Source: Paramarasmius palmivorus
Lineage: Eukaryota > Basidiomycota > Agaricomycetes > Agaricales > Marasmiaceae
Length of the DNA stretch: 64,000 bases
NCBI GenBank assembly: GCA_037176845.1
Contig: JAYKXP010000005.1
Location: 868,001-932,000 of the forward strand
Reading direction: 5' to 3'
The notes below the pieces were generated by a model. The model made no database searches. It was not told the DNA's origin and saw only the letters and a program-made list of their open reading frames with translations. The position numbers and the translations under genes are program-made. Positions 25,401 through 26,879 of the stretch are shown here, piece by piece (positions within the stretch are counted from its first letter, which is position 1; each line of letters begins with the position of its first letter).

Positions 25401-26879
25401 ATGATCTGCTCAAAAACCGTTTTTCGGTGCTTCAAGGCCCTCGAACGGTTTGGAGATAGAATTACAGGAGCTGCAGGGCCGTATTTTGTTGGATTTGCTG
25501 TTGTGCTGCTTAGTACGGGGTTAATATCTTTCTGTGCGTATTCTGCGTCTCTTTGGTTTGCTGTCGGTGTGCTAACCGTGCTAGGTAGTCGACGTTATAA
25601 TGCCCAATCTGTCATATCCTCTGATCACTGGACCTATATGCATTCTTATTGCACTCAATCTCTTCATGCATTATTATTATGTCGTCACTGTACCACCAGG
25701 CTTCGCTGAAGAACCACCTCGAGAAGCAGGGACGGGTTTTCTTTGGGCTAAACCCAGATCTCCAAAGCCAAAGAGACCATTAACGGAGGGTGTTAGATGG
25801 TCAAGTGACTTGAATATAACCAAGGCCACTGCGACGAGATGTAGAAAATGTGGGCAGGTGAAACCTGAGGTGTGTATTCTTTTGTCTTCTTTTTTGCAGG
25901 CCAGGCTCAACCCACGGAGAGGACACATCATTGTAGGATATGTAATCGATGTGTACTCAAGTATGATCATCATTGTCCAGTGCGTATTATTTCTGTGCAA
26001 CTGGGCCTTCGAACTGACGAGACTGCGACAGTGTATGTGTCCTTGCGTGTCGTTGGTCTGATATTGATGTGCAAAAAGGGATAAATCAATGCGTCGGGCT
26101 CCATAACGAAAGACATTTTGTCATGTTCATGTGTGTTCTATCCTGCAAGCCTCACCCATAATTCCTGACCTATAACACTTCAGGGGATACCTTTGTCTCG
26201 CCGCACTGTGCTTCTGCGTTCTTGGGTACCAGGAATTCTTCAATGCGCTTGGGCTATTCCACGTGTGTCGTGTAATATTCTGTACCAGAGCTGCGCTAAT
26301 GCATCGTCCCCTTAGGATGAATGGAATTACCACGTCCCGGTACTAGCCTTCATCCTCATCTTCGTCCTCGCAGGAGTACTATTCTTCGCTGTGGGGATCA
26401 TGTTCCTCTTTCACTTGCACAGCGTCATGAAGGCAGAAACATCAGTCGAACATCAAGATCACGAGCACTACAGAAAAGTAGCATTATCTAGAGCAGAGGC
26501 AAGTGTCTAGCAGCTCTTCGTGTGATGTGCAAGAGCTCATTCTGGGATTCTGTAGACGTTTGTCAACTCATATGATTTAGGGTATGTTTCGGGCATTGTA
26601 GTCTCGTCCACGATCCATTGACTTGCGGATCCAATAGACGAAGAAAAAACCTCGAGCTTTTCTTCAATATAGGTGAAACTGGATAGTATGTACTACCGCT
26701 CGCGGCATGCCACATTTCATCTCACGCAATTCAACAGCCCTATATATACACTATTTTTTCCTTTCCGCATATTACCCTACACGGACGGAAGATCATGGGC
26801 ACGAAGAGCTGGATTCGACCGACATCATGGAGTTAGACAAGGCGAAGAGTTGACGGATGACGAAGAGGAATGGGATTAG
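25401..26879 (+). CDS. DHHC-type protein S-palmitoyltransferase
   Basis: Ten exons: 25401-25533, 25589-25869, 25920-25979, 26032 (one base), 26079-26130, 26184-26262, 26316-26498, 26556-26581, 26638-26685, 26738-26879; 334 residues. Two TM segments precede the cysteine-rich domain (GPYFVGFAVVLLSTGLISFF; PLITGPICILIALNLFMHYYY), which reads RCRKCGQVKPERTHHCRICNRCVLKYDHHCPW with catalytic Cys157, then INQCVGLHNERHFVMF. Two more TM segments follow (GYLCLAALCFCVLGYQEFF; VPVLAFILIFVLAGVLFFAVGIMFLF). The later TxE-like and NSYDLGRRKNLELFFN segments and the acidic C-terminus are typical of fungal PFA-type enzymes. It attaches palmitate to cysteines of membrane proteins. The tryptophan of DHHCPW is split T|GG around the putative one-base exon. 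The intron at 26499 is GC-AG. Together the introns outnumber those of its neighbours. Confidence 0.92.
26032..26032 (+). other. Putative one-nucleotide exon of the DHHC gene
   Basis: The T at 26032 is flanked by GACTGCGACAG and GTATGTGTCC. The left intron (25980-26031, 52 nt) has donor GTGCGT and a CTGAC branch-site-like sequence; the right intron (26033-26078, 46 nt) has donor GTATGT. T plus GG from 26079 makes the tryptophan of DHHCPW-INQC. Splicing directly from 25979 to 26079 gives CCA GGA TAA, a stop. Confidence 0.75.
26499..26555 (+). other. GC-AG intron (DHHC gene)
   Basis: Donor GCAAGT after AGA GCA GAG, acceptor CTGTAG. Removal gives RAETFVNSYDLGRRKN, a conserved segment. The nearby GTGTCT donor puts the frame out. 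Confidence 0.8.

What the first reader, a model, noticed from the sequence alone, without database searches (positions are those of the whole stretch)
25980..26078. One-nucleotide exon in the DHHC palmitoyltransferase gene
Between the codons for DHHCP and INQC lie 99 bases. No single GT-AG or GC-AG intron keeps the frame: joining 25979 to 26079 gives a stop. Two ordinary introns (52 nt with GTGCGT and a CTGAC branch-like site; 46 nt with GTATGT) leave a single T at 26032, and T|GG supplies the invariant tryptophan of DHHCPW. One-nucleotide exons are very rare; a case in a plant APC11 gene is known to me. Other acceptor/donor pairs inside the 99 bases give exon lengths of the wrong phase.
Basis: partly seen in the sequence, partly recalled or inferred. 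Interest (0 to 1): 0.88.

Follow-up and report, generated by a model that had tools for sequence, protein, structure and literature searches.

The report
Ancient one-letter exon in mushroom gene
A mushroom-family fungus appears to splice a single DNA letter between two introns to build the active site of a protein-lipidating enzyme; relatives seem to share this arrangement, and most of the published gene models examined get it wrong.

Summary
The one-nucleotide-exon reading holds, though part of its argument does not. In-frame alternatives exist: 11 single-intron and 29 two-intron joins. But exactly one of the 40, introns 25980-26031 and 26033-26078 around T26032, gives DHHCPWINQCVG. The gene is a ten-exon, 334-residue DHHC palmitoyltransferase; its closest hit is from Moniliophthora roreri, 87%.

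The decisive evidence is comparative. Of 134 Agaricomycete genome annotations examined, 130 do not read DHHCPW here: 62 read DHHCPVR and five have no DHHC. All 35 unnamed environmental homologues examined, many on short transcript-like contigs, and 10 of 10 Tremellomycete annotations read DHHCPW. No other junction shows such a split. DHHCPVR is what a predicted donor slid four bases into GTRNGT would give.

I infer a one-base exon inherited since early Agaricomycetes and misannotated across the class. Precedents are plant APC11 and VPS55 and Fusarium CYP621A, so this is a new member of a known kind. No RNA from this species and no genomic DNA of relatives could be read.

The parts
25401..25533 (+). 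exon 1 (start codon), 133 nt
25534..25588 (+). intron 1, 55 nt, GT-AG
25589..25869 (+). exon 2, 281 nt
25870..25919 (+). intron 2, 50 nt, GT-AG
25920..25979 (+). exon 3, 60 nt, ends with codons for DHHCP
25980..26031 (+). intron 3, 52 nt, donor GTGCGT, branch-like CTGAC 14 nt before the end, acceptor CAG
26032..26032 (+). exon 4: the single-nucleotide exon T, first base of the TGG tryptophan codon
   Evidence: only 1 of 40 in-frame joins restoring DHHCPWINQCVG; W in 35 of 35 environmental homologues
26033..26078 (+). intron 4, 46 nt, donor GTATGT, branch-like CTGAT and TTGAT, acceptor AAG
26079..26130 (+). exon 5, 52 nt, begins with GG of the tryptophan codon
26131..26183 (+). intron 5, 53 nt, GT-AG
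26184..26262 (+). exon 6, 79 nt
26263..26315 (+). intron 6, 53 nt, GT-AG (first placed at 26265, corrected)
26316..26498 (+). exon 7, 183 nt
26499..26555 (+). intron 7, 57 nt, GC-AG
26556..26581 (+). exon 8, 26 nt
26582..26637 (+). intron 8, 56 nt, GT-AG
26638..26685 (+). exon 9, 48 nt
26686..26737 (+). intron 9, 52 nt, GT-AG
26738..26879 (+). exon 10 to the stop codon, 142 nt

Best explanation
The gene encodes a DHHC protein acyltransferase. Between the codon for P and the last two bases of the W codon lie two ordinary U2-type introns (52 and 46 nt) separated by one exonic base, T26032. The spliceosome, working by intron definition, removes the two introns one after the other, because the 3' site of the first and the 5' site of the second overlap and cannot both be occupied (mechanism inferred). 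T joins GG to make the TGG tryptophan of DHHCPW. The arrangement is inherited from an early Agaricomycete ancestor (inferred from proteins, not seen in DNA of relatives). Gene-prediction programs avoid the one-base exon by sliding a splice site, most often four bases into a GTRNGT donor, which replaces W by VR or VW.
For: Of 11 single-intron and 29 two-intron in-frame joins only the one-base exon gives DHHCPW[IVL]NxC[VI]G. The rest of the frame is intact over ten exons, 334 aa, DHHC family at 117.4 bits against a cut-off of 28.7. 35 of 35 environmental homologues and 10 of 10 Tremellomycete annotations read DHHCPW; 4 of 134 Agaricomycete genome annotations do. Length at this junction departs in 114 of 134 genome rows and 0 of 35 environmental rows; at the other seven junctions the genome count is 0-11 except one loop that varies in both sets. 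11 of 30 long environmental rows lie on contigs with under 300 nt beyond the CDS, less than the 474 nt of introns in the window's gene. The nearest genome row of an environmental row lacks DHHCPW in 33 of 35 cases, and the environmental label needs at least 15 changes on starred branches of a 121-row tree. The other four DHHC genes found in this genome have the W codon uninterrupted, read by eye.
Against: No RNA from this species was available, and no genomic DNA of relatives, so the T exon in relatives is inferred from proteins. The loosest chance model gives an AG-T-GT in 3.3% of shuffles. Introns of 46 nt or less are no commoner among strict candidates of this genome (3 of 86) than among decoys (3 of 51, GARNGT). 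Four genome annotations do read DHHCPW, and whether they have the one-base exon or lost an intron is unknown. 15 annotations read DHHCPG, unexplained. Environmental rows are more clustered on the trees than shuffled labels, and not every one is proven to be spliced RNA.
Confidence: 0.92

Rival explanations
1. A single 95-nt intron (25984-26078) is used and the protein really reads DHHCP-VR-INQC, as public annotations of many relatives say.
For: In frame; the same VR form is annotated in 62 of 134 Agaricomycete proteins, Moniliophthora roreri among them.
Against: 0 of 35 environmental and 0 of 10 Tremellomycete rows have it. It loses the tryptophan present in all four other DHHC genes found in this genome and adds a residue before the next conserved Cys. 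Its donor GTATTA scored at the 2nd percentile of a drifting training set against the 87th for GTGCGT (rough). Sister annotations use many different work-arounds, which points to a shared modelling problem.
Confidence: 0.03
2. The gene is a pseudogene, or the assembly lacks a base at this junction, and an ordinary single intron of about 99 nt once did the job.
For: One missing base would explain the phase problem in this species alone; there is one copy in the assembly to compare with (one search found no second).
Against: The other exons are intact and 130 of 134 relatives' annotations fail at the same junction, which independent errors would not give. Strict intron candidates of 90-105 nt are no commoner than decoys (4 of 86 against 8 of 51).
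Confidence: 0.02
3. A slightly longer micro-exon (7 or 13 nt) or a nested twin intron is used instead.
For: In-frame 7-nt (CM-W) and 13-nt (CMCP-W) exons exist.
Against: They insert 2-4 residues between P and W, seen in none of 35 environmental rows. Their second donors (GTCCTT, GCGTGT) are poor. Both introns have their own complete donor and acceptor, so no twin-intron logic is needed.
Confidence: 0.02

Closest known systems
Single-nucleotide exon of Fusarium CYP621A P450 genes (PMC12940212; parts 1 and 2 of 3 of the text read)
   Same: Nuclear fungal gene; one base between AG and GT; needed to complete a codon of a conserved motif; nearly all transcript models wrong at the motif according to the authors; total span about twice the usual intron.
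   Different: Ascomycete, base G in AGGGT, one genus (20 orthologues); the authors had RNA reads, which I do not.
APC11 1-nt exon of Arabidopsis and land plants (PMC4674806, part 1 of 3 read; PMC8831610, passages)
   Same: One base exon needed for the frame, missed by annotation, conserved widely.
   Different: Plant; first intron stretch far longer (the A lies 333 nt into a 422-nt stretch); proven by cDNA and mutated reporters.
VPS55 1-nt exon of land plants (PMC8831610, passages)
   Same: Deeply conserved one-base exon missing from reference annotations; GTRAGT donors conserved.
   Different: Plant; in some species retained or skipped by alternative splicing.
Placozoan mitochondrial cox1 single-base exon (PMC5436844, passages)
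   Same: One base supplies a conserved residue.
   Different: Mitochondrial, group I self-splicing introns.
Micro-exons of Phanerochaete P450 genes (PMC1184071, passages)
   Same: Agaricomycete with tiny exons and frequent 45-55 bp introns.
   Different: Shortest exon reported there is 6 bp.

Membership tests
Nuclear single-nucleotide exon | One base between an intron's AG and the next intron's GT | tested here: met
   CAG-T-GTATGT at 26029-26038
Nuclear single-nucleotide exon | The base is needed for the frame and motif | tested here: met
   Only 1 of 40 in-frame joins gives the motif; other frame-keeping joins exist but break it
Nuclear single-nucleotide exon | The base is present in mature RNA of the species | not testable with these tools
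   No RNA reads held
Nuclear single-nucleotide exon | Same arrangement in relatives' DNA | tested here: inconclusive
   Inferred from proteins only: 130 of 134 genome annotations do not read DHHCPW, 35 of 35 environmental rows do; viral-contig scan found nothing
DHHC palmitoyltransferase (PF01529) | Profile match over cut-off and intact DHHC | tested here: met
   117.4 bits against 28.7; DHHCPW present in the spliced model
DHHC palmitoyltransferase (PF01529) | Acyltransferase activity | not testable with these tools
   No assay
Spliceosomal twin intron (stwintron; definition recalled) | An internal intron interrupts a splice signal of an external intron, with nothing exonic left between | tested here: not met
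   Both introns have complete separate GT and AG sites and T26032 stays in the product

The most novel reading that the evidence does not exclude
The one-base exon dates from the common ancestor of Agaricomycetes, perhaps with Dacrymycetes (one annotation, DHHCPLG, points that way), and has been kept because it acts as a splicing switch: skipping it shifts the frame right after DHHCP (in this species straight into CCA GGA TAA), so its inclusion turns the enzyme on or off.
Probability: 0.1. Interest if true: 0.9.

Novelty: new member of a known kind. Interest (0 to 1): 0.76.

Why it matters
Three nuclear genes with one-base exons turned up in the papers I looked into (plant APC11 and VPS55, Fusarium CYP621A). 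This would add one in Basidiomycota, apparently kept across a whole class, in the active-site motif of an enzyme. It would show that spliceosomes can use and retain such exons over very long times. It would also show that automatic annotation can corrupt one enzyme family across a class: 130 of the 134 Agaricomycete models examined do not read DHHCPW and five have no DHHC. It gives a simple benchmark for gene finders and RNA aligners, and public RNA data of many mushrooms would make it testable at once.

Tried and rejected
Pseudogene or assembly error: rejected, because the rest of the frame is intact and the same junction is abnormal in 130 of 134 annotations. A second copy or allele in the assembly to check the bases: none found. 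Splice-site matrices trained on 301,505 bases of this genome drifted as false candidates entered (264 to 900 introns over six rounds), so I rely only on the stricter length statistics with decoy donors; by those, introns of 46 nt or less are not enriched (3 of 86 against 3 of 51).

Not explained: the DHHCPG form in 15 annotations; whether the four annotations with DHHCPW (Tricholomella, Taiwanofungus, Mycena latifolia, Flagelloscypha) have the one-base exon or lost an intron. P0123, an environmental row on a 5823-nt contig, has W but departs from the family after the exon 7 boundary, so it may be partly spliced or a gene model; I kept it in the count.

Limits of the counts: the three protein searches listed 120 hits each, of 441, 220 and 338 (in one search only the 7999 candidates sharing most words were scored). 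Every listed protein (180 distinct) was classified. Each query contained the W, which favours W rows, so that bias runs against the finding. For 11 of 30 rows of 285 aa or more the contig length argues for spliced RNA, on the assumption that their genes hold about as much intron as the window's. The trees are quick LG+G4 trees with the junction columns taken out where it could be parsed. Among the 31 mis-joins ending in xG, three are VG and may be donor slides rather than read-through. A paper search on the role of the tryptophan gave nothing, a second did. The bacterial promoter and terminator scan was of no use here.

Full report
What is there. The window lies on contig C5 of a 68.3-Mb assembly in 393 contigs. 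The protein's closest hit is from Moniliophthora roreri (87% identity), so the organism is probably an agaric of that kin. The gene at 25401-26879 (+) was modelled by hand from the sequence: ten exons of 133, 281, 60, 1, 52, 79, 183, 26, 48 and 142 nt, 334 residues (a first version had intron 6 two bases off). Eight introns are GT-AG and one (26499-26555) is GC-AG; lengths are 46-57 nt. Pfam gives DHHC palmitoyltransferase at 117.4 bits against a cut-off of 28.7, and the human DHHC20 structure is the best solved relative by sequence.

Checking the claim. Exon 3 ends with DHHCP at 25979. The next conserved stretch, INQCVGLHNERHF, is preceded by GG and needs one T to make the tryptophan. Joining 25979 to 26079 gives CCA GGA TAA. 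Enumerating joins with GT or GC donors and AG acceptors (introns of 30 nt or more, within the bounds given in the observation check) gave 11 single-intron and 29 two-intron in-frame products. In 20,000 shuffles of the interior the loose AG-T-GT pattern with both introns at least 40 nt occurs in 666, with a GTRNGT second donor in 41, and with branch-like sites in both introns in 15.

Intron lengths. In 301,505 bases of this genome, 86 strict intron candidates (GTRNGT donor, YAG acceptor, branch-like site, in-frame stop inside, 60 open codons on each side) peak at 50-64 nt, with 53 of 86 at 45-70 nt against 16 of 51 for GARNGT decoys. Candidates of 90-105 nt (4 of 86) are no commoner than decoys (8 of 51), so a single intron of 95-99 nt would be unusual; but 46 nt or less (3 of 86 against 3 of 51) is not enriched either. 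In Phanerochaete P450 genes introns of 45-55 bp are described as frequent (PMC1184071, passages).

Relatives. Three protein searches listed 180 distinct homologues: 134 Agaricomycete genome annotations, 1 Dacrymycete, 10 Tremellomycetes and 35 unnamed environmental proteins. DHHCPW is read by 35 of 35 environmental rows, 10 of 10 Tremellomycetes and 4 of 134 Agaricomycete annotations. The other 130 show VR (62), VW (5), G (15), a skip of the whole junction (3), other insertions or replacements (39) or could not be parsed (6). Five of the 134 have no DHHC at all, four of them reading DHHW, as if the T of the Cys codon TGT had been borrowed. VR and VW are what a four-base slide of the donor gives when joined to GG: GTGAGT, GTGCGT, GTAAGT or GTACGT yields V-R and GTATGT yields V-W. 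In the window this is the join 25984-26078. In 31 longer mis-joins ending in xG before [IVL]N (30 Agaricomycete, 1 Dacrymycete), x is L, T, P, A, V, S or I in 29, as expected if a YAG|GG acceptor is read through; three of these are VG and may be donor slides. The mis-joins span, by recalled orders of the named organisms, Agaricales, Boletales, Polyporales, Russulales, Hymenochaetales, Gloeophyllales, Cantharellales, Sebacinales, Auriculariales, Trechisporales and the kin of Ramaria and Sphaerobolus; the single Dacrymycete reads LG.

Controls. At the micro-exon junction the length departs from the window's in 114 of 134 genome rows and 0 of 35 environmental rows. At the other seven intron positions the genome figure is 0 to 11 of 133-134, except the exon 6/7 loop, which varies in both sets (75 of 134 and 17 of 35; 10 of 10 Tremellomycetes). 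Environmental rows are interleaved with genome rows: 16 changes of label on a 121-row tree, at least 15 forced by starred branches; 25 changes, at least 16 forced, on a 159-row tree. They are still more clustered than shuffled labels (means 19.7 and 30.4). The nearest genome row does not read DHHCPW in 33 of 35 cases, at 54-89% identity. 11 of 30 environmental rows of 285 aa or more sit on contigs that leave under 300 nt beyond the CDS, less than the 474 nt of introns in the window's gene, so these are very probably spliced RNA. The four other DHHC genes found in this genome have the W codon uninterrupted, read by eye.

How it works. Shown: the sequence arrangement, the single motif-restoring join, and the split between annotations and environmental rows. 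Inferred: T26032 is spliced in as an exon; the introns go one after the other because their splice sites overlap; relatives share the base. The tryptophan lies two residues after the catalytic Cys. In human DHHC20 the residue two positions after the motif, Trp158, is described from simulations as a conserved gate of the acyl cavity (PMC9105814, passages), a reason why it cannot simply be lost.

What is known. Nuclear one-base exons in the papers looked into: plant APC11 (PMC4674806, part 1 of 3) and VPS55 (PMC8831610, passages), and Fusarium CYP621A (PMC12940212, parts 1-2 of 3). A mitochondrial one is known in placozoans (PMC5436844, passages), and two fungal mitogenome papers hold the term (PMC12308204, PMC8208691, search listings only). 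No paper on such an exon in a basidiomycete nuclear gene or in a palmitoyltransferase was evident in the listings; these cover only openly licensed PubMed Central papers. I therefore file it as a new member of a known kind, unusual for its breadth.

Noticed in passing
26499-26555: GC-AG intron with donor GCAAGT in the same gene, needed to keep the frame.
   Followed up: partly
24721-25260: Open frame on the + strand just upstream matches Aminotran_4 (88.3 bits).
   Followed up: no
27324-28907 (minus strand): A 527-codon open frame with no Pfam-A match at E 0.001; by eye its start holds a CPICFD stretch like part of a RING finger.
   Followed up: no
P0067, P0069, P0084, P0115, P0131 (genome-annotated relatives): These five annotated proteins have no DHHC motif; four read DHHW, as if the donor had been moved into the Cys codon.
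   Followed up: partly
15 genome-annotated relatives, for example P0031, P0053, P0160, P0174: They read DHHCPG at the junction, which implies one extra base G rather than T; how the models were built is unclear.
   Followed up: no
P0123 (environmental, 5823-nt contig): Has W at the junction but departs from the family right after SRGE, the exon 7/8 boundary, as if that intron were retained.
   Followed up: no
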